This document shows, piece by piece, positions 6,105 through 64,000 of a DNA stretch of 64,000 nt (its first letter is position 1; each line of letters begins with the position of its first letter). A program made the translations under genes and the position numbers. Under the pieces are notes generated by a model. It made no database searches. It was not told the DNA's origin and saw nothing but the letters and a program-made list of their open reading frames with translations. This DNA is from a virus: positions 99,717 through 163,716 of IMG/VR virus record IMGVR_UViG_3300031772_000003; one strand, 5' to 3'.

Positions 6105-6733
6105 TACTGCCCCCTCCGAAACACAGCACCAATAAAGTCAGGCGAGGTCGGCACCATCCTCTCCAAAGTGAAGCTCTCACTAATCTTGTCTATGACAACC
6201 GAGGGACTAGCCCATATCATCGACTCGAAGTTCCCCAGTTCGACGTGGCTTCTCCCCCTCTTATCCTTCCACCGTGTGGTCAATTTCATACTCGTGGATA
6301 GCTCCAAGAGGAAATAGCCGCCAGGCATTAGAACTCTAACAACCTGCCCAATCACCTTATCTAGGTCGAATGAGTGGTCCAAGCAATTGGTGTAGACAAT
6401 ACACAAGGAAGAGTCAGCCGCAGGTATTGAATGGAAATCCCCCACAGTCACGTAGGGGTTACTCTCGCCAGGATACAAATCAATGCCCTTAGCGCCCACG
6501 AACCCAAGCTGCCTCAACGCAACGACTTCTTCCCCCAGCCTAGCCCCCAAGCACAACACCCCAGGGCTTCTAGGTAAGCCCCCAGTAAGTATCCCAAGCC
6601 TGTCCACAATCCGAGATAACCTCTGGTTGAATGCAGCCTTGAACTCTGCTATTCCTGTCTGGAGTTTCGCGGCTTGGTGCTTGATGTATGACTCGTAGTC
6701 AGGGTAATTTCGGTAGACAATGGGATTAGCCAC
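6104..6733 (-). CDS. SAM-dependent methyltransferase, 209 aa
   Basis: After an N-terminal helical region, the segment V-L-C-L-G-A-R-L-G-E-E (around residue 60) corresponds to motif I, G-I-D-L-Y-P-G to motif II, and S-L-C-I-V-Y-T-N-C-L-D-H-S-F-D-L-D-K to the Methyltransf_11 post-motif II strand and helix. The last gene of the glycan cluster to carry a methyltransferase fold, it overlaps its upstream neighbour by 8 bp. Substrate unknown. Confidence 0.7.
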   Translation of the reverse strand: MANPIVYRNYPDYESYIKHQAAKLQTGIAEFKAAFNQRLSRIVDRLGILTGGLPRSPGVLCLGARLGEEVVALRQLGFVGAKGIDLYPGESNPYVTVGDFHSIPAADSSLCIVYTNCLDHSFDLDKVIGQVVRVLMPGGYFLLELSTSMKLTTRWKDKRGRSHVELGNFESMIWASPSVVIDKISESFTLERMVPTSPDFIGAVFRRGQ

Positions 6734-19709: not shown

Positions 19710-20060
19710 TCAAATGACCGGAGACTGCCACACATGTCCTGAATCAGCCTCGGGGTCGAGCAACGCTACCATGAGGTCGCGCGCCGCCGCCCCACCCGAT
19801 CCAATGATGCGGAGGACCTTGGCCGAGGTGACCTTCTCCACGCGCAGATCGGTCCCACCCCCATAGGCACCGAGGTTAAACGTGGTCACGAGATCGGTCC
19901 ACGTTGAGCCATCCACGGAGCCCTGAATCTTGAGTGCGAGGGTGCCGGTGGTGAGGTTCCACAGGACGAGACAACGCGACGAGGGGTTGGCGGAGTGGAT
20001 ATTCAAGACGGTGCCGGAGGCCGCGGGCACGGGGAGGATGTCGAAGCTGACGCCGATCAT
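19710..20060 (-). CDS. Tail-type beta-sandwich protein, 116 aa
   Basis: The protein is beta-rich with L-V-L-W-N-L-T-T-G-T, I-Q-G-S-V-D-G-S-T-W-T-D-L and V-L-R-I-I-G strands. This pattern is common in small phage decoration and tail-tip proteins (S-x-D-G-x-T-W). A related pattern recurs at 53313-53768 (Y-S-A-D-G-L-T-W). GAGGAG precedes the ATG, which overlaps the upstream stop (ATGA). Confidence 0.55.
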   Translation of the reverse strand: MIGVSFDILPVPAASGTVLNIHSANPSSRCLVLWNLTTGTLALKIQGSVDGSTWTDLVTTFNLGAYGGGTDLRVEKVTSAKVLRIIGSGGAAARDLMVALLDPEADSGHVWQSPVI

Positions 20061-22351
20061 CGGGGTCTCCTCTCCAGACGCTCCATGAGAACGCCCTCAC
20101 GCCACCGCTGGGAGGATTCCAGGATGAGACGAACCGCCGCAGCGGGGTTACGGAGGACCGTGCTGTTGAGGTAATTTCGAGCCCGAGCCAAGCGCTCAGG
20201 AGTCAAGTTCCAGAGACGTTGGGCTTTGGCATCCCACTCACAGGACCCGGGCGCGTCGTCCTCAAGTCCCGCGGGGCCAAGTCGCATTATGTTCTCCGGC
20301 ACAGCCACGGGACCAATACGGTCGATGCCGACCCACTGGGCCTCACCGGTCTCAAGCTCCACGAGGCACTTCAGCCTACGGGCGTCCACAACGACGCCTT
20401 CGAGAGGGCTGCCGTCCTCCATGATGACGAGGACGGGCATGCGGGGGGTGAGACCCTCGCGCGGTAAATCATCCACGAAATGCTCGGCGTCGCCCTTCGA
20501 GACGCCCTGCCCACCCTGGCCCCCCTCCAAGGGGTCACAGGGGGCCGCGAGGTCGTGGCCGGGGGCCTTGATGTCGAGCACCTGAAGCACGGTCTGGATC
20601 GCCCCGGGGGCGTAGTGAATCGTGACCGTGGGCCTGCCAGGATCATTGTCGCACCTGATTCCGTGGCCCTCAAGCTCCGCGATCAGGGCGGCACGGGCCG
20701 CCAGAGGGACGGTAACGGCATGTGACTTGCTGCCTCCCTCGGGATCGTTAGTAGCAGGCACGGGCTTGGGAGGAGGAACGGACATCGGGTCCACGGCCTC
20801 CTTAACAGCCTCGCCCCGTGAACCACGCGCCCAATTTCGCTGCCCACACCGCAAGCATGTACGCGGCGTGAACATTCCCTCTCCCTCTGGGTCCCACAAA
20901 AATGCTCGTCTGCACTTCTCACACTGAAGCCGCATGAGCCCACGCGCTTCGGCACCGGGCCATATTGTCCCCCGCTCCCCCTGCGCTACGACCTTTTCAC
21001 TTACCCTCTCCTCAGCCAGCAACTTGTCCACATCCGCGAGCAGGCCCTCTCCGCCCTCCCATCCCATCACGTCCCGTCCCGTAAAGTAGCCTCTGGGATT
21101 CGATGGAATAGGCTCCTCGGGTTCCTCCTCATCATCTTCGTCTTGAAGTTCACCCTCGGGTTCCTCACCCCCCACACCCGGCGGCTCGGCAACGCTCAGG
21201 TACTCATCGGGCAGGCTCGTGATGTCCTCCAAGTGGCCCCACCAATCCTCCGGGAGCGTCGAGGGCCTGCCGTCCCAGTCATCTGGAGCCTCTACCACAC
21301 CAGCAGCGACAGCCAGCGCCGCTTGGTCCCAGACAGAATCGACATAGAGCGTCGATCCATCCTCAAAGTAGACCTCAATGGCCCCACCCGTCCCCGGTAG
21401 GGTCCAGACCTCGCAGGGGACGTGGCCGGGAGGCAGATCACTGGCCTCCTCCTCGTCCCTGCCTACAGTGAGAGACGCGAAATGGGGGTCACCCGCGGCG
21501 ACCTCGGCCAAATAGCGGTCCACCTCCTCCTCAACAGGAATCTCGCCCTTCAACTCCACATCCTTGCCACCACGCTTGGGCCAGCCACCCTTCCCCTTGG
21601 GCTTCTTACCCTTCTTGCCCTTGCCACGGAGCCACGGCGGCAGGCCCTTGCCTCTTTTCTTCGGGGTGGGCTCCTCCTCATCATCCTCACCGCGGTCCAT
21701 GGGACCCTTGCCCTTGAGCAGCTTGGCAATCGCGTCGGAGTCCTTGCCCTTGGGCTTATCCTTGGGGCGAACGTCTTTACCCCCTGGCTTCGGCTTCAGC
21801 GGAGGTTTACCCCCCATACCACCAGACCCCTGCAACTTGTCTTTGGGCAGTTCCGTCCCATCCTCTTCGTCCTCTGGCTCCTCCTTGCCCTTGGCCCACT
21901 TAGTCTTGAGAGCGGCGGGCATGGGCGGGCCGGGCCGTTTCTTACGACGTTCCTCGATGGACTCTATGATGGGAGCCGCTGCAAGTTGGTCCTCCACGGT
22001 CGTATCCTCAATAGACGAAGCAGGGTCAGCAGGGGGCTCGTCCCCCCGCAGATCAATCTCCGTGAGAGCATCGGCAGGGTCCGCATCCCCATCCACGGCG
22101 GCGGGAGGGGACGGAGCAAATGCCTCCACGATCTTGGGAAAGGGACGGGGCGCGGGAACAGGAGCAGGAATCCCGCCCAGCATCCCAAGCGTGCCTTCAT
22201 CCAGGCCAAGTTCCCCAACGGGAGCAACGGACTCCACGATGGATTCACCGCCACTTGGGCCCATCATCTCCAAGAGGCCCGCCTGGTCATCGGGAGCAGG
22301 CTCGGGCGGGGTCGGTCCTGGCATAGGGGGGAGGGGTGGCATATCAACCAT
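20057..22351 (-). CDS. Large disordered acidic/basic protein with zinc ribbon, 764 aa
   Basis: AGGAG lies 9 nt before the ATG. Residues 1-250 are proline-, glutamate- and lysine-rich low-complexity sequence with long K/G/P runs. Around residues 500-535 a C-E-K-C...C-L-R-C-G zinc ribbon is followed by R-N-W-A-R-G. A ~70-residue folded segment (V-T-V-P-L-A-A-R-A-A-L-I-A-E-L-E-G-H-G) follows, then a small beta domain. Several (L/I)-x-E sites are present (IVE, IIE, LAE), so it may also be a substrate of the head protease, for example a scaffold or core protein. That is inference; no family is recognised. Confidence 0.5.
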   Translation of the reverse strand: MVDMPPLPPMPGPTPPEPAPDDQAGLLEMMGPSGGESIVESVAPVGELGLDEGTLGMLGGIPAPVPAPRPFPKIVEAFAPSPPAAVDGDADPADALTEIDLRGDEPPADPASSIEDTTVEDQLAAAPIIESIEERRKKRPGPPMPAALKTKWAKGKEEPEDEEDGTELPKDKLQGSGGMGGKPPLKPKPGGKDVRPKDKPKGKDSDAIAKLLKGKGPMDRGEDDEEEPTPKKRGKGLPPWLRGKGKKGKKPKGKGGWPKRGGKDVELKGEIPVEEEVDRYLAEVAAGDPHFASLTVGRDEEEASDLPPGHVPCEVWTLPGTGGAIEVYFEDGSTLYVDSVWDQAALAVAAGVVEAPDDWDGRPSTLPEDWWGHLEDITSLPDEYLSVAEPPGVGGEEPEGELQDEDDEEEPEEPIPSNPRGYFTGRDVMGWEGGEGLLADVDKLLAEERVSEKVVAQGERGTIWPGAEARGLMRLQCEKCRRAFLWDPEGEGMFTPRTCLRCGQRNWARGSRGEAVKEAVDPMSVPPPKPVPATNDPEGGSKSHAVTVPLAARAALIAELEGHGIRCDNDPGRPTVTIHYAPGAIQTVLQVLDIKAPGHDLAAPCDPLEGGQGGQGVSKGDAEHFVDDLPREGLTPRMPVLVIMEDGSPLEGVVVDARRLKCLVELETGEAQWVGIDRIGPVAVPENIMRLGPAGLEDDAPGSCEWDAKAQRLWNLTPERLARARNYLNSTVLRNPAAAVRLILESSQRWREGVLMERLERRPR

Positions 22352-33958: not shown

Positions 33959-35041
33959 TTAGTCTCTCATTCCCAACTCGGTTTCGATGACTGCCCTGCT
34001 ACGATTGGCACTTCGCAGGTAATTCCACGCTTGGCTGACCCAACGGACTAGCCAGCCCCAAAAGCCCTCGGTGAGGGTCGCTTGGTCCACTACGGCCTCC
34101 TGGGGAGGTGTGGCCACGTCGGGGGCAGCGGCCTCCGGCGGGCGCTCGAACCTGAGAATCGGGTCCCCAGGAGCCAGGGTACGGCCAGGCGTGGTATGCT
34201 TGGCCAGGAGATCATCGATCAACTTCTTGAGGTCCGCTGACATATTGGCAATCTCGTCCACGACCTTATTGTAATGCCTAACTGGAGCGCTGATCCTCGC
34301 CTTCTGCTGCTCCAAATAGATGCGTATATCATCTACCCACATCTCCTGATTCGTGAACCCCGCCAGCAGTGGCATAAGCGTCTTCACCTTGTCCCCGTAC
34401 TCATTGGTGAGGCGGGCAACCTCCATCTTAGCCTCCCGCAACTGCTCACCAAGACGCACGGCGAGACGGGCCACTTCAATCAAGGTGTCGCGGAGTTCGC
34501 CACGAATGCCTGGAATTATGGTTTTGCCAGCCTCAGCGACGGGCGCAGCAGGTGCAGCAGGCGCGGGTTTGGGGGAGGGACGTGGCGCAGGAGCGGGGGC
34601 ATTCGCGGGCTCGGGCTCCTCAGCCAGCACGTCACGCACCACGGCATCCACGATGGATGCACGGTCGAGGGACTCCATGCCCCTCACCGTGCTCTTGCAC
34701 GGAATGCGCATGTGGACATGCTTGCCGCTGGGCAGCGTCTTGGCTACAGTGCTGGGAGCGATCTCCTCACCGCAGACCGAGCAGGTCTCCTCGACCTCAA
34801 CAGACTCACCCCTCGGCTTCGTCGCCCCTTTGCCCTTCTTGAACCCCGTCTTGGCGCGCAGGGCAAAGAGCAACTCCCCCATCTTCTCTTTGTTGTCTGG
34901 CTTGCCCTTGAGGGCCGCGATCTCTTTACGGAGTTGGGCCACGGTTTTGCCCTCATGCTCGCCTGTTTTCTTGATTTCCACGTCCTTATCCCACTTCTCG
35001 TTCAAGACGGCATCAACGGCCCATGCCAGATCGGTCTTCAC
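33959..35041 (-). CDS. Head-processed protein with targeting peptide and internal linker, 360 aa
   Basis: The GTG start (after AAGGAG) yields M-K-T-D-L-A-W-A-V-D-A-V-L-N-E, similar to the T4 capsid-targeting sequence in pattern and ending in L-N-E. A zinc pair C-S-V-C-G (about residues 80-90) and C-K-S follow. Around 34620-34680 comes M-E-S-L-D-R then V-L-A-E, a close match to the polyprotein linker. The C-terminal half is a coiled coil with an alanine/proline linker and ends in a membrane-like helix (E-G-F-W-G-W-L-V-R-W). It may be a structural or core protein cut by the same protease. Confidence 0.5.
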   Translation of the reverse strand: MKTDLAWAVDAVLNEKWDKDVEIKKTGEHEGKTVAQLRKEIAALKGKPDNKEKMGELLFALRAKTGFKKGKGATKPRGESVEVEETCSVCGEEIAPSTVAKTLPSGKHVHMRIPCKSTVRGMESLDRASIVDAVVRDVLAEEPEPANAPAPAPRPSPKPAPAAPAAPVAEAGKTIIPGIRGELRDTLIEVARLAVRLGEQLREAKMEVARLTNEYGDKVKTLMPLLAGFTNQEMWVDDIRIYLEQQKARISAPVRHYNKVVDEIANMSADLKKLIDDLLAKHTTPGRTLAPGDPILRFERPPEAAAPDVATPPQEAVVDQATLTEGFWGWLVRWVSQAWNYLRSANRSRAVIETELGMRD

Positions 35042-35751
35042 GTCGTCACTCCTTGAATGGTTCTGAGGTCTTCGCGGCTCAGCACGCGGGCCCGGACGAC
35101 CCGGCCCACCAACGGTCCTGAGAGGACCGGCCCGGCGACGATGCCATAGGTCCCGGTGGTACTCACTTTCATATCCACGATCTGGGGCTTGGCCCCGAGA
35201 GTTCTCGCTTTCACCCTCTGGCCTGGCTTCACGCCCCAGGATGATTCCTTCACAACGTCCCACACGTCACCCTCACCCCCAATATCAGGATTGGTAGCGT
35301 GTGGAGAAATGGGCAAAGTCGTGGTGAGGGGTCTTCCCTCCGGGCCGATGGTAAGGCGGTCGGCGATTCTTTTGACCTTCCCATAGGAGATCATGCGCCC
35401 CAACCGGGTCCGCCTCTCATCACTCTTCACTTCATTCTGAAGATGGCCCTCAATCCGCATTGGAGCAAACTTACCGAAGGGGATACCTCGTGCGGGGTCC
35501 CACAACTGAGCCGCTTTGATGAGGCCCCAGTACGCCGTGGAGATCGCTTCGTCTTCCCCCAGGAAGTGGTGGTAGCGCTTGGCGATGTGAAGGGCGAGCT
35601 TGATGTTGTCCAGAACGAGTTGCTGCTGCACCGGGGTCAGTGGGACCGGCGGAGCGAGATCGGTCCGCTCCCCTCGGGCCTCCGCGATCACGAATGCGAG
35701 AGCATGGGTCAGGACTTCATCCCACTGCGGGTCAGTTGCGGCCATCGTCAC
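35038..35751 (-). CDS. Phage sigma-70-family factor (region 2), 237 aa
   Basis: Residues ~47-115 match sigma region 2: N-I-K-L-A-L-H-I-A-K-R-Y, A-I-S-T-A-Y-W-G-L-I-K-A-A-Q, W-D-P-A-R-G-I-P-F-G-K-F-A, then R-I-E-G-H-L-Q-N-E. Region 2.4-like sequence should contact the -10 element. The C-terminal half has no evident region 4 and may bind a DNA or protein partner of its own. It probably directs RNA polymerase to phage promoters, maybe the 17-nt motif. A GTGA overlap joins it to the upstream gene. Confidence 0.75.
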   Translation of the reverse strand: MTMAATDPQWDEVLTHALAFVIAEARGERTDLAPPVPLTPVQQQLVLDNIKLALHIAKRYHHFLGEDEAISTAYWGLIKAAQLWDPARGIPFGKFAPMRIEGHLQNEVKSDERRTRLGRMISYGKVKRIADRLTIGPEGRPLTTTLPISPHATNPDIGGEGDVWDVVKESSWGVKPGQRVKARTLGAKPQIVDMKVSTTGTYGIVAGPVLSGPLVGRVVRARVLSREDLRTIQGVTT

Positions 35752-55412: not shown

Positions 55413-57563
55413 TCAACTTGTACCCTCCACCACCGCTTCCATTAGACTCTGGGGCCGCTTCACCCCTCCTATGGGGGCGACACCGGCAGCGGCCTTAACG
55501 ATCCGGACGCAATCGGCTGAGGGGGCCCAAATGGTACGGCCCTCGGTCAGCACCGAGCCATCCCACTTATAGGCCGCAACGGGGGGCAGTCCAGCAGGAG
55601 AGAGGTGCCAACTCGACATGTAGCCTGGGAACAACACGTCCTCCAAGAGCTTCCTGCCGGTGCTGAGACGCACCGCCGCGGCCAGCAACTCCGCGGGCTT
55701 GATCCCCTGCCAGTCCAGGGCCAATGCTTCGGGGTTGAACCTGTTGAGGTCGGCGGCGAGCCCACTGACCTGCAAGACGTACTTGGCCCACTCGTCTTTG
55801 GGCAGGCCCAACCGATCACCAGCGTCCGTGAGGGCCTCCACGGCCTCGGCGCGCATCTTCGCCGTCTCCGCGCGCTGTTTCTCCTCAAGGAAACTGATCG
55901 GGACCATGTGGATCTCGAACTCGTTACCGGGCTTGTAGGGATTGATGCCGCGCCAGCACAGATCGATCTGGAAGGCTCGGACCAATCCGGTAATGACGGC
56001 GCGCTGAATCCGCTTACACGACCTAGAAAATTGGATGTCAATTTGGCAGTTGTGTACGAAAGCCCCACAAGCCAAGGCGAAGTTGTGATGGCCATCCACA
56101 GACAAGTCATACACATCGGCAACACCGCCGGGCGCGACGGAGACAATCTTATGGTTACACGCCACCTTACCTAGCGAGACCCAACGGCCCCGCTTGTAGA
56201 AAGGCATTACCGAATCCCCCTCGCAAAGTGTACCAGCAGGCTTGTAGCTGCCGTCCCGCAGCATGACAGGGTGATCGGAGGTGCAGCGGAAGCTCTCCCC
56301 GTTATCCAGCACCACACAAAGAACAGGAGCCCCCTGTTTCGTCAGCCTGGCGGAGTGAGCAACCCCAGGACGCAGGCGGTGGTTCATGGGGTCTACGGCA
56401 TACACCCAAAACTCATCACCGGCCGCCCCCGCGGCAAGCTGCTCCATTGACAACACACGCCCATCCGCCAATGGAACCAGAGTATCACCCGTCAAACAGA
56501 GAGGACTTTGTCCCAGCACCCCGCCCCTAGCCTCTGAGAACCCCACATACTCCGGGGGCACCCTCACGGTGCCAAGGAAGCGCTTGCGGGCGTATTCCAC
56601 GTCTAAGACACGGCCCAAATCGGTGTTGCCCTTCAGGACATCCACGTCGACCATCTCGTCGTCAACATAAATGTCATCATCCACAGTGAACGGATCGATC
56701 TCGGATCGAACCTCCCCGGTAGTGGGGTCAATGAGCCGCTTCTTCCGGATCTCATCCCGCATCTCCTGCATCAGGCTACGGCGCTCCTCCGGCGAGAACT
56801 CCGCCGAGTTCTTAATCTTGAACCGGAGACGGTCCGGGGCGATTTTGAGGCGGAGAAGTATAAGGCTATCCTCTACCATTCTGAGTCTGCGAAAAGGCCG
56901 CCTTGCGGGCTGGAACACCGATGTTCCACCCTTCCCGGTGCGATCACGGCCCGACACCATGTACTGGACCAGGGACCACGGGAGCTCCGCTGGCTTGTCC
57001 TTGGAAGCGCTGTCCCCCACCTCCAAGCCAATCCTGTATCCAATCAGCCTGTTCACCTCATCCCACACAGGGGTCACGATCTTGGGGTCCAGGGGAACGG
57101 AACCAAACATGGGGCCCTTGAGCCCTGTCTTCGCATCCTCCTCCTGGAGGGGGCAATCGTAAGCCACCCCATACTTCGCGGTGTCCCTGGCGAGCCCGAA
57201 GACGTTGTCCTCGATCCTGAGCACGTCCCGCAGGAACTCCTCACCGAGCTTGGCGATGATCTCATTCTTGGAGGTGAGCCACACCGATCTGCCCGTAGCG
57301 TGGTCAATCTGCGTCGCGTCCTCGGCGTAGAGGTCGAGGATCGAGGACGGCAAGTCGTCCTCATCCATGACCTCATATTCCGCGAACCTCTGAATGCGGT
57401 CGGCACCGAGGCGCATTTGCCTGCGGAAGAACTCAGACACGAGGTCGGAGACGCCGCCCCGGCTCACGGCACCGGCGGGGCTGACCGGAGTGCGCGCGAG
57501 AGCGCCGCGCCGGCCCATACCCGTAGCGCGTTTAAGCCAGGACAAACCGGGGACACGAAGCAT
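55413..57563 (-). CDS. Portal protein (T4 gp20-type) interrupted by a mini-intein, 716 aa
   Basis: The exteins (566 aa) match T4-type portals: a helix-rich front, P-x-Y-V-G-F-S-E-A-R-G-G, and after the intein C-Q-I-D-I-Q-F-S-R-S-C-K-R-I-Q, the conserved segment near the clip/stem. The portal forms the dodecameric ring at the packaging vertex. A 150-aa intein occupies residues 356-505. The ATG shares a base with the terminase stop (TGATG), so the two are coupled. Confidence 0.85.
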   Translation of the reverse strand: MLRVPGLSWLKRATGMGRRGALARTPVSPAGAVSRGGVSDLVSEFFRRQMRLGADRIQRFAEYEVMDEDDLPSSILDLYAEDATQIDHATGRSVWLTSKNEIIAKLGEEFLRDVLRIEDNVFGLARDTAKYGVAYDCPLQEEDAKTGLKGPMFGSVPLDPKIVTPVWDEVNRLIGYRIGLEVGDSASKDKPAELPWSLVQYMVSGRDRTGKGGTSVFQPARRPFRRLRMVEDSLILLRLKIAPDRLRFKIKNSAEFSPEERRSLMQEMRDEIRKKRLIDPTTGEVRSEIDPFTVDDDIYVDDEMVDVDVLKGNTDLGRVLDVEYARKRFLGTVRVPPEYVGFSEARGGVLGQSPLCLTGDTLVPLADGRVLSMEQLAAGAAGDEFWVYAVDPMNHRLRPGVAHSARLTKQGAPVLCVVLDNGESFRCTSDHPVMLRDGSYKPAGTLCEGDSVMPFYKRGRWVSLGKVACNHKIVSVAPGGVADVYDLSVDGHHNFALACGAFVHNCQIDIQFSRSCKRIQRAVITGLVRAFQIDLCWRGINPYKPGNEFEIHMVPISFLEEKQRAETAKMRAEAVEALTDAGDRLGLPKDEWAKYVLQVSGLAADLNRFNPEALALDWQGIKPAELLAAAVRLSTGRKLLEDVLFPGYMSSWHLSPAGLPPVAAYKWDGSVLTEGRTIWAPSADCVRIVKAAAGVAPIGGVKRPQSLMEAVVEGTS
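56049..56498 (-). mobile_element. Mini-intein in the portal gene (150 aa)
   Basis: It starts with Cys (C-L-T-G-D-T-L-V) and ends V-H-N followed by extein Cys. Splicing blocks A, B (T-S-D-H-P), F and G are visible; no homing endonuclease domain is present. Closely related to the terminase intein. Confidence 0.9.
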
Positions 57564-59794
57564 CAGTGGGTTCCTATGCTAACGGCACCACGGTAGCGGT
57601 TCATGTAGGCCCTATGGCCAACCCGAACCGACAAATCAACTCCCTCCAGGACATGTGCGGCCACAGCCACGGCGGCGTCCAAAACATCCTTGGAGTTGTG
57701 TACAAACACCCCAGCAGACAAGGCAAAGTTACTGTAGTCATCAACCTCTAGATCATACGCAGGGACACTCGTACTCAGGGACCTAACTGAAATAACTTTG
57801 TGGTTCTGGCCTGCTCCATAATACCTGTAGAGGGGCATCAGTGAGACCCCACGCTGTAGCTCGCCCGCAGGGCAATAGCTCCCATCTCGTAGCATGAATG
57901 GATGATCTGCGGTACACACCACTGCATGGTCATTGTCCAAGACCACCTCAACCATCTGGGCAGTCTTGGTCAATCTAGCTGCCCTTGCCTTGCCAGGCAC
58001 TACCTCGCCACTAGGCTTACAGGAGTAGACCCAGAACTCCTCGCCCGCGGCTCCCTCAGCAAGCTCCTGCATAGTGAGTGTTGTACCGTTCAACAAGGGA
58101 ACCCTCGTATGCCCCGCCAGACAACCACCAGTCGAGTGGTCTATTACGCCGGCCGTGGTGTCCTTCAGTACCTGCTCGGCCTCGGCCAGAACAGGAGCGT
58201 ATCTATACCAGTTTACGCGCCGGTCCAGGACCGCCTTTCGGAACGTGAGGTAGGGATCGAGGCCGACGCTGAACTGTGAGGCGTTGATCCCGGCGACATT
58301 GAGCATCTGGATGTTCTGGCGCGATTGGAACTGATCGTAGGTCACGGCCCCGATGGGAAGGCCCTGCTCCCGGAGCCATTTGATGAACTGCACCACCGCG
58401 GTCAAGTCCACCTCCTCACCCAACGGAGCCTTGACACGCAGAAGCAGATCGTAGTAGACCCCAGCCCCCGTAACACCGTACATTCTGTGGCCCACAGCAA
58501 GGCCCAAGGCATCCCACTTCAAGCCGATATCGACGTGGATGTGGCGGGCCATCCCCGGGTTGACCAGCGGCACGGGGACGGAATGGGCAATGTGAAAGAG
58601 CCTGGCGGGGGCAACCACCTCCTCGATTCCGCGGTTGCGGCCCACGCCAAGATAGCGAACCTCATCCACCGTAGTAGGCGAGACGCGCAGGGGATCGACG
58701 CAATTCTCCAAACAGGCCGCGTCCGGAAAGAGACGCTGGACTGAAGCAACGCTGAACCCACCAAGGTCCATCAGGGCCTCACCGGGGTCCTGCACGAACT
58801 CATTGTATAGCTCAATGGGAACGGAGGCGATACGAACCCCTGTGGGTGGCACCTCACCGGGCTCTAGGATGACAGACCGATGGGTCTCGTCCCCGATAAC
58901 GACATCAAAAGTCTCGCCACTAAACCGTCCCGAACCACCGCGGGCGTCCCAGAGCGTCATTGACGTGACGTGGGTATGGGGATCGTCCTGGTGTTTCCGC
59001 TCGTGCTCATCCAAAAAACTGCTCGGGGTCTCCTGGGATGACATCAAGATCATAAGACAAGGCAGCCTGCCCCCCCACTGGATGAACCTACTAACCATAC
59101 GCCGGCGCGATGCCCTGTAGAGGTCGTGGGCCCTGGTTTGTTCCCCAGGTTTCCCGCTAAGTTTCCGCTTGTGCCGATAGAAGTTGGCCTCATCCAGTGT
59201 CACCCCAAAGAGGTTCTCACCCTGGACATGCCCGGCCAACGAGCCGCTATGGATGACAACCCGCTTCTGCGGCCACACAATCTTATCCCCAGACCTAGCC
59301 TGCCGGGGGTAGTGTTTTTGGAACCACGGCGATTCGTCAACCCATGTCTGGAGCGCATCGATCCCACTCTCTGCCCGCTCCAATGTGATGTTGAGGATTG
59401 CAAAGAATATCCATGAGCCACGCAGCAATCCATAGTACTCCGCTGGGCTGCCTTTGAGAAGCAATTGGCAGTAGGCTTTGTACAAGATTGCCGCAGAGGC
59501 CGTCGTTGTCTTAAATGTGCCGATTGCCCCCTTCATGATCCACTCCACAATGGGACTATCGGGGGCCAGGACGATCTCAAGTTCGCGCAGCCACGTCTCG
59601 CTACATGCCCCCATGAACTTGCCCAGATAGTGCTCGTCCTGAAGGAATTGGCGGATCGGGACCGGGGGCTCCTCATAGTCCCACGCCCATGCCGCCGCCA
59701 CTGCAGCGTCAACACGCCCGTCCGCCAAGTGCTCGGCGAGCCAAGCCCTAGCCTGGGGGGAGAGCGATTCGAGTTCCGGGACCAGTGTGTCCAT
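57563..59794 (-). CDS. Terminase large subunit interrupted by a mini-intein, 743 aa
   Basis: The start is the ATG at 59794. Residues 88-97 (K-G-A-I-G-T-F-K-T-T) form Walker A and 197-201 (V-T-L-D-E) Walker B of the packaging ATPase. The nuclease half has H-V-D-I-G-L (D421) and V-T-Y-D-Q-F (D486), and the third acidic motif S-K-D-V-L-D-A lies directly after the intein (residues 558-700). It packages DNA into the prohead with the portal. Confidence 0.9.
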   Translation of the reverse strand: MDTLVPELESLSPQARAWLAEHLADGRVDAAVAAAWAWDYEEPPVPIRQFLQDEHYLGKFMGACSETWLRELEIVLAPDSPIVEWIMKGAIGTFKTTTASAAILYKAYCQLLLKGSPAEYYGLLRGSWIFFAILNITLERAESGIDALQTWVDESPWFQKHYPRQARSGDKIVWPQKRVVIHSGSLAGHVQGENLFGVTLDEANFYRHKRKLSGKPGEQTRAHDLYRASRRRMVSRFIQWGGRLPCLMILMSSQETPSSFLDEHERKHQDDPHTHVTSMTLWDARGGSGRFSGETFDVVIGDETHRSVILEPGEVPPTGVRIASVPIELYNEFVQDPGEALMDLGGFSVASVQRLFPDAACLENCVDPLRVSPTTVDEVRYLGVGRNRGIEEVVAPARLFHIAHSVPVPLVNPGMARHIHVDIGLKWDALGLAVGHRMYGVTGAGVYYDLLLRVKAPLGEEVDLTAVVQFIKWLREQGLPIGAVTYDQFQSRQNIQMLNVAGINASQFSVGLDPYLTFRKAVLDRRVNWYRYAPVLAEAEQVLKDTTAGVIDHSTGGCLAGHTRVPLLNGTTLTMQELAEGAAGEEFWVYSCKPSGEVVPGKARAARLTKTAQMVEVVLDNDHAVVCTADHPFMLRDGSYCPAGELQRGVSLMPLYRYYGAGQNHKVISVRSLSTSVPAYDLEVDDYSNFALSAGVFVHNSKDVLDAAVAVAAHVLEGVDLSVRVGHRAYMNRYRGAVSIGTH
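57695..58123 (-). mobile_element. Mini-intein in the terminase gene (143 aa)
   Basis: It begins C-L-A-G-H-T-R-V and ends F-V-H-N before extein Ser. T-A-D-H-P (block B) is present; no endonuclease. It is inserted just ahead of the third nuclease aspartate motif. Similar throughout to the portal intein, so both derive from one ancestor. Confidence 0.9.
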
Positions 59795-60437
59795 CTTGCT
59801 GCATTCCCTGGAGACGGGCGAGGACACGCCGGATCGCCTCACGGTCTGATGGGGGCAATACCGCCTCCTCCCCACCCAACGGCTCTTGGTCGGCTCCAAG
59901 TTCCTTGAGAAGGGTTTCCAACCGTTGCGCCAGCGTCGCGGTCCCACGGCTATCCTTGTCCACCGCCGCGGTAATCATCGCCAAGTCTGCCGCAATCGAC
60001 TGCTCCAGCCGTGCCTGGAGAGTAGTGACCTCGACGGTCTTGAGCGTCCCCAGCCCCTTGAGGTCCTCAGCCCGGCGCTTCAACTCAGCATCCACGTCCA
60101 GCAGAGCGGAGTTGAGCCCGTTGATCCGGTCGATTCGCGTCAGCATCAAGAGGTGAAAGGCCAGCCTGATCTTGACATCCTGTTCCCGGAGCCTAGCTAG
60201 GGCGGCAGCCGGCAGGTCTCTGTTCTCGCTGCCGTCCTCCAGCCATTGAGCCACAGCGCCTAGCAACTCGATCAGGGTCTGGCGGCGCACCCTAATCGGT
60301 GGCACCCTCAGCGCCGTGTGGATGTGCAGATGCCCACCCAACGCCTTACGGCTCGTAAATATCTTGGGGCAGTGGGGGCAGGGGTGACACTCCACTAACG
60401 CTGTCGCCGCTGTTGTCGCCGCCCCTTCTTCAGGCAT
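59748..60437 (-). CDS. C2H2 zinc-finger coiled-coil protein, possible small terminase, 229 aa
   Basis: An N-terminal classical C2H2 finger (C-P-H-C...A-L-G-G-H-L-H-I-H, ~residues 17-40) is followed by a long coiled coil (I-N-G-L-N-S-A-L-L-D-V-D-A-E-L-K-R-R) and a C-terminal acidic region. Position directly before the large terminase and the DNA-binding plus oligomerising layout suggest the small terminase, but sequence similarity is not evident. Confidence 0.45.
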   Translation of the reverse strand: MPEEGAATTAATALVECHPCPHCPKIFTSRKALGGHLHIHTALRVPPIRVRRQTLIELLGAVAQWLEDGSENRDLPAAALARLREQDVKIRLAFHLLMLTRIDRINGLNSALLDVDAELKRRAEDLKGLGTLKTVEVTTLQARLEQSIAADLAMITAAVDKDSRGTATLAQRLETLLKELGADQEPLGGEEAVLPPSDREAIRRVLARLQGMQQDGHTGPGTRIALPPG

Positions 60438-60475: not shown

Positions 60476-61123
60476 TTATACCCCGCGTTCGCCAATAAGC
60501 AACCGACCATATCTGCACAGAGCCAGAGCATCGGCTCTACCATCCGCGTTCCCCACCGCTGCGTCGGGGAACCAGTCTCGCACCTTCGATTTCACCTCAG
60601 CCTTCACTCCCCGCTTCCGCTCCGCCAGCAGTCGCCGATGCTCCTTTAATGCCGCTGCGTCCTCATCTTTTGCCTTCTCCTCCTCATCCTCAGTAAGCGC
60701 CAGCCCGTCCATAGAGACACGAGCCTGAGCCTTCGGCCTCTTTGGGGCAAGGGGCATGACGATGCCCAGGGCCTTCTGCCACTTTCTGCCCCCCACCTCC
60801 ACGAGTTGCAGCGGGGGCAGGCCAGGAGCGCGGTGCCGCTGCATCGACCTGATACGGTCCCTGAGAGCCCCATAGTTCACGGCAAATGTCCAACCACTCA
60901 CCGAGCCCTGGCCCGGGAATGCGTGCTGCTCCTCCAAGATAACACAGTCAATCGCATGCCCTGTTTCGGCCTCCCACCCCAGCAGTGTCGTCTCGACCAC
61001 ATCCGTATCCACGTCGTTACCCCGACCCCTAGCGGGCATGTCGAGGAAATGTACCTGCCCCGTCTCTACACACAAACCCGCAACGGCCCCCGCCTTTCCA
61101 GGATCGATCCCCGCGATCAACAC
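60476..61123 (-). CDS. RuvC-like Holliday-junction resolvase, 215 aa
   Basis: The GTG start follows GAAGGAG by 7 nt. I-A-G-I-D-P-G-K-A-G-A is the first RuvC motif, V-I-L-E-E-Q-H-A the second, and D-G-R-A-D-A-L-A-L-C the third acidic motif. The enzyme resolves branched DNA before packaging. It follows the TnpB-sigma gene by 15 bp. Confidence 0.8.
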   Translation of the reverse strand: MLIAGIDPGKAGAVAGLCVETGQVHFLDMPARGRGNDVDTDVVETTLLGWEAETGHAIDCVILEEQHAFPGQGSVSGWTFAVNYGALRDRIRSMQRHRAPGLPPLQLVEVGGRKWQKALGIVMPLAPKRPKAQARVSMDGLALTEDEEEKAKDEDAAALKEHRRLLAERKRGVKAEVKSKVRDWFPDAAVGNADGRADALALCRYGRLLIGERGV

Positions 61124-61137
61124 GGTATTTCTCCTTC

Positions 61138-62952
61138 TCAAAATACATCATTCCACAAGTCCTGCCACGTCCCCTCATCGGCAAGCAAGCCGCGAGCCTT
61201 GCGTTCAAGGCTGCCGTAGGCAGCCACCACCACGGGCCTCTCCAGACCAGTAGCGTCCACAAGGGTGGCGACCTTGTTGCCTACGCCAAGGCCACCCTGC
61301 TCGCCCAGGAGGCACTGCAGCAGGAGCGCCTCGGCCTCATTGAGCATGCCCTCTAGCTCCCCGAGCAGAACAGCGGGATCGACGGGGACGGCAGAGGGGG
61401 CCGCGTAGTCCTCGGAGACCCCACCCGGAGCGCGCCTGTCCCGCTCCCTATAACGAGCCCGCAACTTGTCGAGGAAGCGATACCCAAGCATCGCATGGAG
61501 AAAACCGACCTTGTTAGTGGTCCCTTGCCACTTCGGTTGGCCCATCCACTGGAGCGTAAGTTGCCACCCATCCTGGTACAGGTCGTCGTAGGACTCGATG
61601 TAGGCATAATGAGCGGCAACGCCGCGGATCAGGTGGTCCACCGTCTCGAATGAGATGCCACCGATCTGTAGTGGTGTCTCGTCTACCCTGGTTTGCGGCG
61701 CATGGAGCCCCGAAGGCAGACCTTCCTCTGCCTCAACCCCCCATGGCGGGGGGCACAGCCGACCAGTTATAGGCTGCTCGCCTGCAGGAATCCCACCTGC
61801 ATCGTGCCTCTCGGCGGGGTTGGCCACCGCTGCTGGACACAGCCCTGCAAGGGCGGCTTGGGGCCGGAGCACGCGCTTCAGCCCCGGCCACCGCTTGCGG
61901 CTCAGAGCAATGGACACACCTCTTCCTTCAAGGTTCAGTATGCCCTTCTCCATGCCGCAAGTGGCCTTGAAATCCATCCGTTCCTTGAACCATAGGCCGC
62001 GGCGCGCAATGATCATCGCCGCAGCCCCCTGGTCCGACAGGGAGTACATGCGTCGGTACTTGAGGCTGCCCAACTCCACCATGAACGCCGTATCCACCTC
62101 CATGGCCTCGACGCCACGCCGCATCGCTCGTGACAACAGCGCCTCCACGGCCTCTCGATGCCGGGTCTGATCCCTATGGGGTCCCGCGATCCTGCCTCGG
62201 GTCTCCACGACGAGCTTACGTCCCCGCTTCTCCGCTTCCCGTAATATGTCCGCCGCGCCGGCTCGCACGTCACTGAGCCGCTTGCCGGGCCCCGCACCCC
62301 ACCTCACCGCTGCACCTACATGGTGCCCCACCACATTCCCGTCCGGCCCCACCTCCAGCACAGCCACGCCTAGTGGCCCAATCGTGACCCCCAGAGCCCC
62401 ATGGTTGATCCGCACCGGAGGCTTGGACGCATCCCACTCGATCCGAAACACGAAGGAGCCGTCGCGGCGGAGCAAGCGGACGGCATAGCAGGTGGGATCG
62501 GGCTGGAACTTGGTGGGCACGTAGGCCCGCCCCTCAATCCAGCGGCCCCGTGGATCGCGCACCCGCAAGACGCTGCCGCGGAGTTGGATGTGGGGATTGC
62601 CACCACGGCCCCGGTCGCCACGTGAGTACAACTGAGAGTTCCGGCGAGCCTGCCAGTCCTCACGGCTAATCCGTCCCGCTTGGAGGTCATCCCAAGCGCT
62701 GCGGCCCCCAAAGACAAAATTGGGGTAGCGCACTACCTGCACCATCGAACATGCGTCGTTGATGTAGCCCTGGTTCAGTGGCTCCATGTAGCGGCGCTTG
62801 ACGTATCGCCTGACCTTGTTACCACGGAGGCCGTGTTTCTGGTACGCTTGGCAGGCACTGCGGACAGCAGAGCATTGGAGCCGCATTAACTCCAATACCC
62901 GCTCCGCATCGGGCGGGGAGAACCAGACGGAACCGTGCGCGACGCACCTCAA
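61138..62952 (-). CDS. TnpB-related RNA-guided-nuclease-like protein fused to an ECF-like sigma factor, 604 aa
   Basis: A TTG start follows GAGGAG by 7 nt. Residues ~1-370 match zinc-ribbon-less TnpB/OrfB relatives: F-V-F-G-G-R-S-A-W, R-I-S-R-E-D-W-Q-A-R-R-N-S-Q-L-Y-S-R-G, then RuvC-I-like G-V-T-I-G-P-L-G (Asp replaced by Thr, ~190), V-V-E-T (Glu, ~250) and L-S-D-Q-G-A-A-A-M-I-I-A-R-R-G-L (~307). No CxxC zinc ribbon is present. Residues ~435-600 resemble a sigma factor: D-D-L-Y-Q-D-G-W-Q-L-T-L-Q-W...F-L-D-K-L-R-A-R-Y-R-E-R (region 2), then a region 4-like helix-turn-helix. A nuclease-dead guide-directed sigma activity is possible (inference). Confidence 0.7.
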   Translation of the reverse strand: MRCVAHGSVWFSPPDAERVLELMRLQCSAVRSACQAYQKHGLRGNKVRRYVKRRYMEPLNQGYINDACSMVQVVRYPNFVFGGRSAWDDLQAGRISREDWQARRNSQLYSRGDRGRGGNPHIQLRGSVLRVRDPRGRWIEGRAYVPTKFQPDPTCYAVRLLRRDGSFVFRIEWDASKPPVRINHGALGVTIGPLGVAVLEVGPDGNVVGHHVGAAVRWGAGPGKRLSDVRAGAADILREAEKRGRKLVVETRGRIAGPHRDQTRHREAVEALLSRAMRRGVEAMEVDTAFMVELGSLKYRRMYSLSDQGAAAMIIARRGLWFKERMDFKATCGMEKGILNLEGRGVSIALSRKRWPGLKRVLRPQAALAGLCPAAVANPAERHDAGGIPAGEQPITGRLCPPPWGVEAEEGLPSGLHAPQTRVDETPLQIGGISFETVDHLIRGVAAHYAYIESYDDLYQDGWQLTLQWMGQPKWQGTTNKVGFLHAMLGYRFLDKLRARYRERDRRAPGGVSEDYAAPSAVPVDPAVLLGELEGMLNEAEALLLQCLLGEQGGLGVGNKVATLVDATGLERPVVVAAYGSLERKARGLLADEGTWQDLWNDVF

Positions 62953-62987
62953 CAGGCCACTCCTCAAGCCCTGCTGATCGCGGGCAG

Positions 62988-63461
62988 TTACCGCATTATA
63001 TCACCATCGGGACCGAATGTCAAGCCCCCACGCTTCCGTTCCACCAAATTGCTGCGTCGCTTCCGGCCCGCGACAAGCGTTACCCCAAGCAGTTCCACGG
63101 GGTCACTCACAACGAGCAGATCGGCACCGGTGACCTCCACTGATGTCCGGGTGCGAAGAGCGTTGATCCTCGCGGTGCCGTAGGTCCCTGGGGTGCCGGC
63201 ATCCTCCGCGAACCGTTGGATCACCATCATCGCATCCTCGCGGGGGGCATCGAACTCAAAGACGGTATAGGAGTCCGCGTACCGCACCCTGATCCAACCA
63301 TTCTTCAGCACCCGACGCAGAATCTCCTCCCGCGTTCCAATACTATCCCCCCGGGCCAAACCAAAGCGGGAGGGGGTCACCAGCACAGCGGCCAAGTGCT
63401 CCTCGACCGGGAACGCCCGGCCATCACGGATTCTCAGCCACCAACCCTCACCAATGGGCAC
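62988..63461 (-). CDS. Free-standing W-DG module protein, 157 aa
   Basis: W-W-L-R-I-R-D-G-R-A-F-P-V at the front and N-G-W-I-R-V-R-Y later match the W-DG modules of both giant polyproteins. This is the only copy found as a separate gene, with no linker or LxE end. It shows that the module can function alone. Confidence 0.55.
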   Translation of the reverse strand: MPIGEGWWLRIRDGRAFPVEEHLAAVLVTPSRFGLARGDSIGTREEILRRVLKNGWIRVRYADSYTVFEFDAPREDAMMVIQRFAEDAGTPGTYGTARINALRTRTSVEVTGADLLVVSDPVELLGVTLVAGRKRRSNLVERKRGGLTFGPDGDIMR

Positions 63462-63501: not shown

Positions 63502-64000
63502 CTACGCCCTCTTCCCCCCACGCCACACCCCATCCGCCAAGCGGTACCCACGGCAGATAGGGGCGAAGCCCTTGGGTGCAGCCACGAGGCTGCTGAGGTT
63601 GAGGTAGCCCCCTGCTTTGGGGGCAAAGCCCTCGGGTGCAGCCACGAGGCTGCCGAGGTAAAGGTTGCCCCCTACTTTGGGGGCGAAGCCTTCGGGTGCA
63701 GCCACGAGGCTGCGGAGGTCGAGGCTGCCCCCTGCTTTGGGGGCGAAGCCCTCGGGTGCAGCCACGAGGCTGCTGAGGTCGAGGTCGCCCCCTGCTTGGG
63801 GGGCGAAGCCCTCGGGTACAGTGGTGAGGCTGCTGAGGTAGAGGTAGCCCCCTGCTTTGGGGGCGAAGCCCTCGGGTGCAGCCACGAGGCTGCTGAGGTT
63901 GAGGTAGCCCCCTGCTTTGGGGGCAAAGCCCTCGGGTGCAGCCACGAGGCTGCCGAGGTAAAGGTTGCCCCCTACTTTGGGGGCGAAGCCTTCGGGTGCA
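63502..64000 (-). CDS. Partial leucine-rich-repeat protein (C-terminal part)
   Basis: The frame runs off the right edge of the window. Visible are about seven and a half 20-residue LRR units like those at 29072-29998, followed by the same closing tail (C-R-G-Y-R-L-A-D-G-V-W). The two genes are paralogues of a recent duplication. Confidence 0.75.
   Translation of the reverse strand, partial: APEGFAPKVGGNLYLGSLVAAPEGFAPKAGGYLNLSSLVAAPEGFAPKAGGYLYLSSLTTVPEGFAPQAGGDLDLSSLVAAPEGFAPKAGGSLDLRSLVAAPEGFAPKVGGNLYLGSLVAAPEGFAPKAGGYLNLSSLVAAPKGFAPICRGYRLADGVWRGGKRA
63541..64000. repeat. 60-bp tandem repeat array, second locus
   Basis: Seven to eight 60-bp units nearly identical to those at 29121-29660, 34 kb away; the array continues past the window. 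Confidence 0.9.

What the first reader, a model, noticed from the sequence alone, without database searches (positions are those of the whole stretch)
61138..62952. TnpB-related protein with a lost RuvC aspartate fused to a sigma factor
A zinc-ribbon-less TnpB-like half with Asp-to-Thr in the first RuvC motif is joined in frame to a full ECF-like sigma region 2 plus region 4-like end. Nuclease-dead TnpB relatives are known to repress or, with sigma partners, direct transcription through guide RNAs. A natural single-chain fusion in a phage would be a new way to retarget RNA polymerase. Fusion and substitution are seen; guide-directed activity is inference.
Basis: partly seen in the sequence, partly recalled or inferred. 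Interest (0 to 1): 0.88.

Follow-up and report, generated by a model that had tools for sequence, protein, structure and literature searches.

The report
Dead RNA-guided nuclease fused to phage domain
A large phage carries a TnpB-type RNA-guided DNA cutter that has lost its cutting residues but kept its guide-RNA scaffold, and a single stop-codon change has joined it to a second, helical phage domain that may (but has not been shown to) be a sigma factor; it looks like a cutter turned into a programmable DNA-binding regulator.

Summary
The ORF is real: window 61138-62952, minus strand, 604 aa, starting at a TTG with an AGGAG ribosome site, behind the window's only perfect TTGACA-17-TATAAT promoter. 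The first half is a TnpB. Its nearest kin are six IS607-type TnpBs, five in phages (40-45% identity). All six keep RuvC-I Asp and RuvC-II Glu and share His in place of RuvC-III Asp; the window copy alone has Thr and Gln there. Its N-terminal lobe is conserved (41/48 invariant residues); its RuvC domain is not (29/50). No kin have the fusion: their TAA stop, just before the element end (AAACCAGG), is CAA here.

New result: the gene's 3' end encodes a guide-RNA scaffold. A covariance model built without the window finds it (61687-61804, E=3.4e-10), and base pairs covary strongly (40 two-sided changes, 13 in shuffles). Four hairpins are kept; the last is lost.

The sigma claim is not established: no profile or fold support, only a DLYQDGW...FLDKLR motif. 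Best reading: an exapted, TldR-like, nuclease-dead RNA-guided DNA-binding protein with a C-terminal fusion domain. Main rival: a decaying element with accidental read-through.

The parts
62995..63023 (-). Perfect consensus sigma-70 promoter TTGACA-17-TATAAT, the only one in the window
   Evidence: relatives L113 and L114 also have perfect ones upstream of the gene, with unrelated spacers
62960..62964 (-). Ribosome-binding site AGGAG, 7 nt before the TTG start at 62952
   Evidence: Read from the sequence; relatives start at the aligned residue
61138..62952 (-). Fusion gene: dead TnpB plus C-terminal domain, 604 aa (609 aa from the first possible start, 62967)
61696..62952 (-). TnpB half
   Evidence: tblastn and alignments to clade; fold matches Cas12f/TnpB; tree
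62383..62385 (-). RuvC-I position, Asp to Thr (T195 in 609-aa numbering)
   Evidence: Alignment A8: Asp in all six relatives
62203..62205 (-). RuvC-II Glu kept (E255), with deletions just after it
   Evidence: Alignment A8
62029..62031 (-). RuvC-III position, His in the clade and Asp in the wider family, Gln here (Q313)
61687..61804 (-). Guide-RNA (reRNA) scaffold with hairpins H1-H4; terminal H5 deleted; ends in AAACCAGG
   Evidence: Covariance model built without the window, E 3.4e-10; covariation; hairpin list
61814..61830 (-). Upstream hairpin GCGG...CCGC, at the place of a covarying hairpin in relatives (CCGGGT/ACCCGG, GTAGGT/ACCTAC)
   Evidence: Read from alignments A7 and A9
61693..61695 (-). 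Former TnpB stop codon: TAA in relatives, CAA (Gln) here
61666..61686 (-). Putative guide GTAGACGAGACACCACTACAG, directly after AAACCAGG
   Evidence: Position after the conserved element end; guide role is inference
61141..61665 (-). C-terminal half (aa 435-609), predicted helical; sigma-like motif, identity unproven
60476..61141 (-). RuvC-type Holliday junction resolvase, next gene of the operon
   Evidence: phrog_1770, E 2.3e-10

Best explanation
The gene is an exapted IS607-type TnpB that most likely no longer cuts DNA but is still built to bind a guide RNA and, through it, DNA. Shown: loss of the RuvC-I and RuvC-III residues, conservation of the N-terminal lobe, a covarying guide-RNA scaffold inside the 3' end, no tnpA in the phage record, and an in-frame fusion made by a stop-codon change. 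Inferred: (1) host sigma-70 RNA polymerase transcribes it from the consensus promoter; (2) the reRNA comes from the 3' part of the TnpB half's message and loads into the TnpB half, exposing the nucleotides after AAACCAGG as guide; (3) the complex binds a matching site without cutting and so blocks or redirects transcription; (4) the C-terminal domain, translated by read-through, adds a second function at that site, possibly contact with RNA polymerase or DNA. It works like TldR (nuclease-dead RNA-guided repressor) with an added domain.
For: RuvC-I Asp to Thr and RuvC-III lost while six relatives keep D, E and a common His. N lobe keeps 41/48 invariant residues, RuvC region 29/50 (Fisher p 0.0035); N-lobe identity to relatives (50-56%) lies within or near the range between relatives (52-65%). 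Reading frame intact over about 400 codons despite several indels. Guide-RNA scaffold found by a model that excluded the window, E 3.4e-10, with covariation far above controls and window-specific base pairs in kept stems. No tnpA in the record. Perfect promoter and ribosome site. C half has coding-like GC by position and no ribosome site of its own at in-frame starts.
Against: Terminal hairpin H5 of the scaffold is deleted. Window branch is long, 1.17 against 0.08-0.63 in the phage relatives. Single instance of the fusion; none of the relatives has it. No second target for the guide in the phage. Folding energy of the window scaffold alone is unremarkable (z -1.38). RNA and DNA binding not tested.
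Confidence: 0.55

Rival explanations
1. Decaying IS607 remnant: the element landed just upstream of a phage gene, lost tnpA, lost its active site and then its stop codon; the fusion is an accident without function in the TnpB half.
For: RuvC domain eroded, H5 lost, long branch, single instance; the tnpB in L117 is a remnant and L121 is interrupted, so decay is common in this clade.
Against: Decay is confined to RuvC; N lobe and hairpins H1-H4 are kept with compensating changes; all indels keep the frame; consensus promoter in place.
Confidence: 0.28
2. The C half is a sigma factor, and the single chain is an RNA-guided sigma factor that recruits RNA polymerase to guide-matched sites (a sharper form of the best explanation, the first reader's idea).
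For: Motif DLYQDGW then FLDKLRARYRERD in sigma region 2 spacing; core motif DLxQ[DE]G in 28 sigma loci and in only 2 other fragments among 4360; helices predicted in a sigma-2/sigma-4-like order. Own knowledge, no paper found here: nuclease-dead Cas12f with a separate sigma partner has been reported to direct transcription.
Against: No match in Pfam, PHROGs or NCBIfam at E up to 10; sigma HMM and hhalign no better than shuffles, while another sigma-like gene of the same phage is found by the same tests; model pLDDT 42.
Confidence: 0.22
3. Two proteins from one ORF: the C half is mainly made from an internal start and works on its own; the read-through form is incidental.
For: The guide region and about 15 codons separate the element end from an in-frame GTG (443); the C half heads an operon with the resolvase.
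Against: No ribosome site before any in-frame start of the C half.
Confidence: 0.12
4. The TnpB half still cuts, using a shifted acidic residue (D312 beside Q313).
For: D312 lies one residue from the RuvC-III position (SLSDQGAAA).
Against: RuvC-I Asp and the Asn two residues on are both lost (D195T, N197G) and the segment after RuvC-II Glu is deleted. In the active IS607 enzyme ISFba1, mutating the D194/E290/D371 site abolished interference (PMC11061315).
Confidence: 0.03

Closest known systems
TldR, TnpB-like nuclease-dead repressors (PMC13418256, and its reference 5, doi 10.1038/s41586-024-07598-4)
   Same: TnpB with an inactivated RuvC site that keeps its guide RNA, sits in a phage, outside a transposon, beside a non-transposon gene
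   Different: Here the partner is fused in one chain, the target is unknown, and binding or repression has not been tested
IS607 TnpB guided by RAGATH-18 RNAs (ISFba1; PMC11061315)
   Same: IS607-type TnpB with a 3' reRNA and a guide after the scaffold
   Different: ISFba1 has D-E-D and is active, and its reRNA lies outside the coding sequence; here the scaffold lies inside the ORF, does not match any Rfam family and the site is T-E-Q
TnpB-related proteins of Thermus plasmids and phages (phiLo, Lalka27b)
   Same: Zinc-ribbon-less TnpB with 27-31% identity over about aa 14-331
   Different: They keep D-E-D and carry no fusion domain
Nuclease-dead Cas12f working with a separate sigma factor (own knowledge; no paper found in the held library)
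   Same: The idea of a dead Cas12/TnpB-type protein paired with a sigma factor
   Different: Two proteins there, one chain here; sigma identity of this C half is unproven

Membership tests
TnpB, IS607-type clade | Sequence and fold homology to TnpB | tested here: met
   E 4e-92 to L113, clade support 100/98, Cas12f/TnpB fold matches
TnpB, IS607-type clade | Guide-RNA scaffold at the 3' end of the gene | tested here: met
TnpB, IS607-type clade | Intact RuvC active site | tested here: not met
   T-E-Q instead of D-E-D or the clade's D-E-H
TnpB, IS607-type clade | IS607 tnpA (MerR plus serine recombinase) in the element | tested here: not met
   None in the phage record; present in clade member L117
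TldR nuclease-dead repressor | RuvC site inactivated by mutation | tested here: met
TldR nuclease-dead repressor | Guide RNA retained | tested here: met
   H1-H4 and AAACCAGG kept; H5 lost, so partly degraded
TldR nuclease-dead repressor | Guide matches a regulatory site elsewhere | tested here: inconclusive
   No second site in the phage; host unknown, and TldR guides can be short
TldR nuclease-dead repressor | RNA-guided DNA binding and repression | not testable with these tools
   Needs RIP-seq, ChIP-seq or reporter assays
Sigma-70/ECF sigma factor (C half) | Profile match to sigma region 2 or 4 | tested here: not met
Sigma-70/ECF sigma factor (C half) | Core region 2.2 motif DLxQ[DE]G with a basic helix downstream | tested here: inconclusive
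   Motif present and rare outside sigma loci, but chosen after the fact
Sigma-70/ECF sigma factor (C half) | Sigma fold | tested here: inconclusive
   pLDDT 42, no alignment available

The most novel reading that the evidence does not exclude
A natural single-chain RNA-guided sigma factor: a nuclease-dead TnpB with its own guide RNA, fused to a sigma-like domain, that carries RNA polymerase to guide-matched promoters during phage infection.
Probability: 0.22. Interest if true: 0.93.

Novelty: new variant of a known kind. Interest (0 to 1): 0.68.

Why it matters
Nuclease-dead TnpBs that became RNA-guided regulators are a recent discovery, and the associations described in the paper read here (PMC13418256) are with neighbouring genes. 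A copy whose cutting domain is lost, whose guide-RNA scaffold was kept with compensating base changes, and which is fused to another phage domain by one stop-codon change shows a simple route by which a mobile element can become a multi-domain RNA-guided regulator. In most of this clade the stop codon sits within the last 8 nt of the element, so loss of that one codon can weld the protein to whatever lies downstream. If the second domain proves to be a sigma factor, it would be a ready-made programmable transcription activator.

Tried and rejected
Pfam, PHROGs and NCBIfam on the whole protein and halves: no TnpB or sigma match; Pfam misses the clade relatives as well. tblastn of the C half in phages, two viral scans (one with an invented degenerate alignment meant to catch DLxQxGW proteins) and a search of 300 genomes: no homologue; one weak, stop-containing hit (E 0.007 for one genome among 300) was dismissed. 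hhalign with a small sigma set looked faintly positive but vanished with a larger set, so it is not used as support. Foldseek on the low-confidence C-half model gave no usable match. Guide targets in the phage: none beyond chance. Rfam: no known family at the scaffold. The folding-energy z-score of the window scaffold alone is weak (-1.38), so the RNA claim rests on covariation and the covariance-model match. Relatives of the phage by terminase showed no C-half equivalent upstream of terminase. 399 Bacillota genomes gave no further clade member besides L033. The idea that the TnpB is a random insertion in a structural operon was weighed: L119 and L114 also carry it next to terminase or resolvase genes, but L113, L121 and L122 do not share that neighbourhood, so no conserved position is claimed.

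Full report
Observation. The ORF runs 61138-62967 on the minus strand. The likely start is the TTG at 62952 with AGGAG 7 nt upstream; it aligns with the start of relatives, MRKVAHG. A perfect TTGACA-17-TATAAT promoter lies at 63023-62995 and is the only one in the window; perfect promoters with unrelated spacers also precede the gene in relatives L113 and L114. The window is the last 64 kb of a 163,716-base virus record with a T4-type portal and a gene matching sigma factor and late sigma families elsewhere.

The first half. tblastn finds TnpB-related proteins of Thermus plasmids and phages, and the predicted structure matches Cas12f and TnpB. Iterated scans found a tight clade: L113, L114, L119, L121 and L122 (same gene as in L123) in viral contigs, and L033 in a bacterial bin. 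The tree puts the window copy inside the viral clade (100/98 for the six viral rows; 96/86 for the window with four of them), on a long branch. L117 carries a MerR-serine recombinase tnpA next to a remnant of the same tnpB, and L114 and L121 keep scraps of the tnpA end (read by eye), so the clade is IS607-type. None of them has a zinc ribbon. The window phage record has no such tnpA.

Active site. In the clade RuvC-I Asp and RuvC-II Glu are kept and RuvC-III Asp is His throughout; the Thermus group has D-E-D. The window copy has T195, E255, Q313 (609-aa numbering), with deletions just after E255. Decay is not uniform: of residues invariant in the five viral relatives, the window keeps 41 of 48 in aa 1-120 but 29 of 50 in aa 187-335 (Fisher p 0.0035). 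Whether the D-E-H relatives cut is unknown.

Guide RNA. The 3' ends of the relatives are conserved as DNA up to AAACCAGG, after which they diverge. They share hairpins: H1 (6 bp), H2 (6-7 bp around a loop TATAACTGGTC), H3, H4 and a terminal H5. A covariance model from five relatives, window excluded, finds the window scaffold at 61687-61804 with 50 bits, E 3.4e-10, and no other copy in the record. On the eight-sequence alignment 94.7% of cells pair, against 64.7% in shuffles and 40-50% in slid controls; 40 cells change on both sides against 12.7 in shuffles. That alignment is fitted to the structure, which favours it; but the stems and their compensations are also seen in a direct listing and in the unfitted alignment of the five relatives. 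The window keeps H1 to H4 with base pairs of its own and lacks H5. The guide would be GTAGACGAGACACCACTACAG (61686-61666, minus strand).

The join. L113, L114, L119 and L121 read TAAACCAGG at the element end, with TAA as the stop of the intact genes; the window reads CAAACCAGG, so TAA became CAA and translation runs through the element end and the guide into the next ORF. The C half has no ribosome site at its in-frame starts and has coding-like GC by codon position; its end abuts the start of a RuvC-type resolvase gene. One base of one assembly carries this, so it should be confirmed in reads.

The C half. It looks sigma-like to the eye (SYDDLYQDGW, then FLDKLRARYRERD, then a helix-turn-helix-like end), and the core motif is rare outside sigma loci. 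Every profile test fails, while another sigma-like gene of the same phage (35038-35751) is found by the same tests. No homologue was found in the collections, so structure prediction had no alignment and gave pLDDT 42. Sigma identity is possible, not shown.

Mechanism. The evidence fits a TnpB that lost cutting but kept RNA-guided binding, as in TldR (PMC13418256: nuclease inactivation without apparent loss of guide-RNA and DNA binding, with links to non-transposon genes, in prophages). The added domain would act where the guide directs it. Decay with accidental read-through is the main rival and is favoured by the missing H5, the long branch and the single case.

Membership. It is a TnpB by descent, but the active-site feature is not met. 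It meets the TldR features that can be computed (dead RuvC, kept guide RNA) and not yet the experimental ones. The C half fails the profile tests for sigma-70 membership; that lowers 'it is a sigma factor', not 'it could act in transcription'.

Noticed in passing
window 57563-59947 and 55413-57563; also L023 (record 18-20 kb): Terminase large subunit and T4-type portal each carry an intein, and a third intein-like start sits in an ATPase gene near record position 19 kb; an intein match of 60% identity exists in another phage (L015).
   Followed up: partly
window 63502-64000: Tandem repeats of about 60 bp encoding 20-aa units (VAAPEGFAPKAGGYLNLSSL) at the very end of the record.
   Followed up: no
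L023 (record 19933-20118) and window 35038-35751: Two further sigma-like genes in the same phage: one matches PHROG sigma factor and late sigma families, the other a region-2-only sigma-like protein.
   Followed up: partly
L113, L114, L119, L121, L122, L033: A TnpB clade with a conserved His in place of the RuvC-III Asp (D-E-H); whether it still cuts is an open question.
   Followed up: partly
L121:5567-6448: A protein ORF interrupts tnpB between the RuvC-III region and an intact reRNA end at 6714; looks like a homing-endonuclease-type insertion.
   Followed up: no
L117:2649-3460: IS607 element with tnpA whose tnpB is mostly deleted but whose reRNA scaffold is kept (E 8.5e-14), so it may supply a guide RNA without its own TnpB.
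   Followed up: partly
L003:4648-5017 and L011:2609-3147: In Thermus phage Lalka27b an annotated CRISPR array lies directly downstream of a TnpB gene; L011 shows similar repeats after its TnpB.
   Followed up: no
window 59748-60437: Protein with a C2H2-like zinc finger between the resolvase and terminase genes (Pfam matches below cut-off).
   Followed up: no
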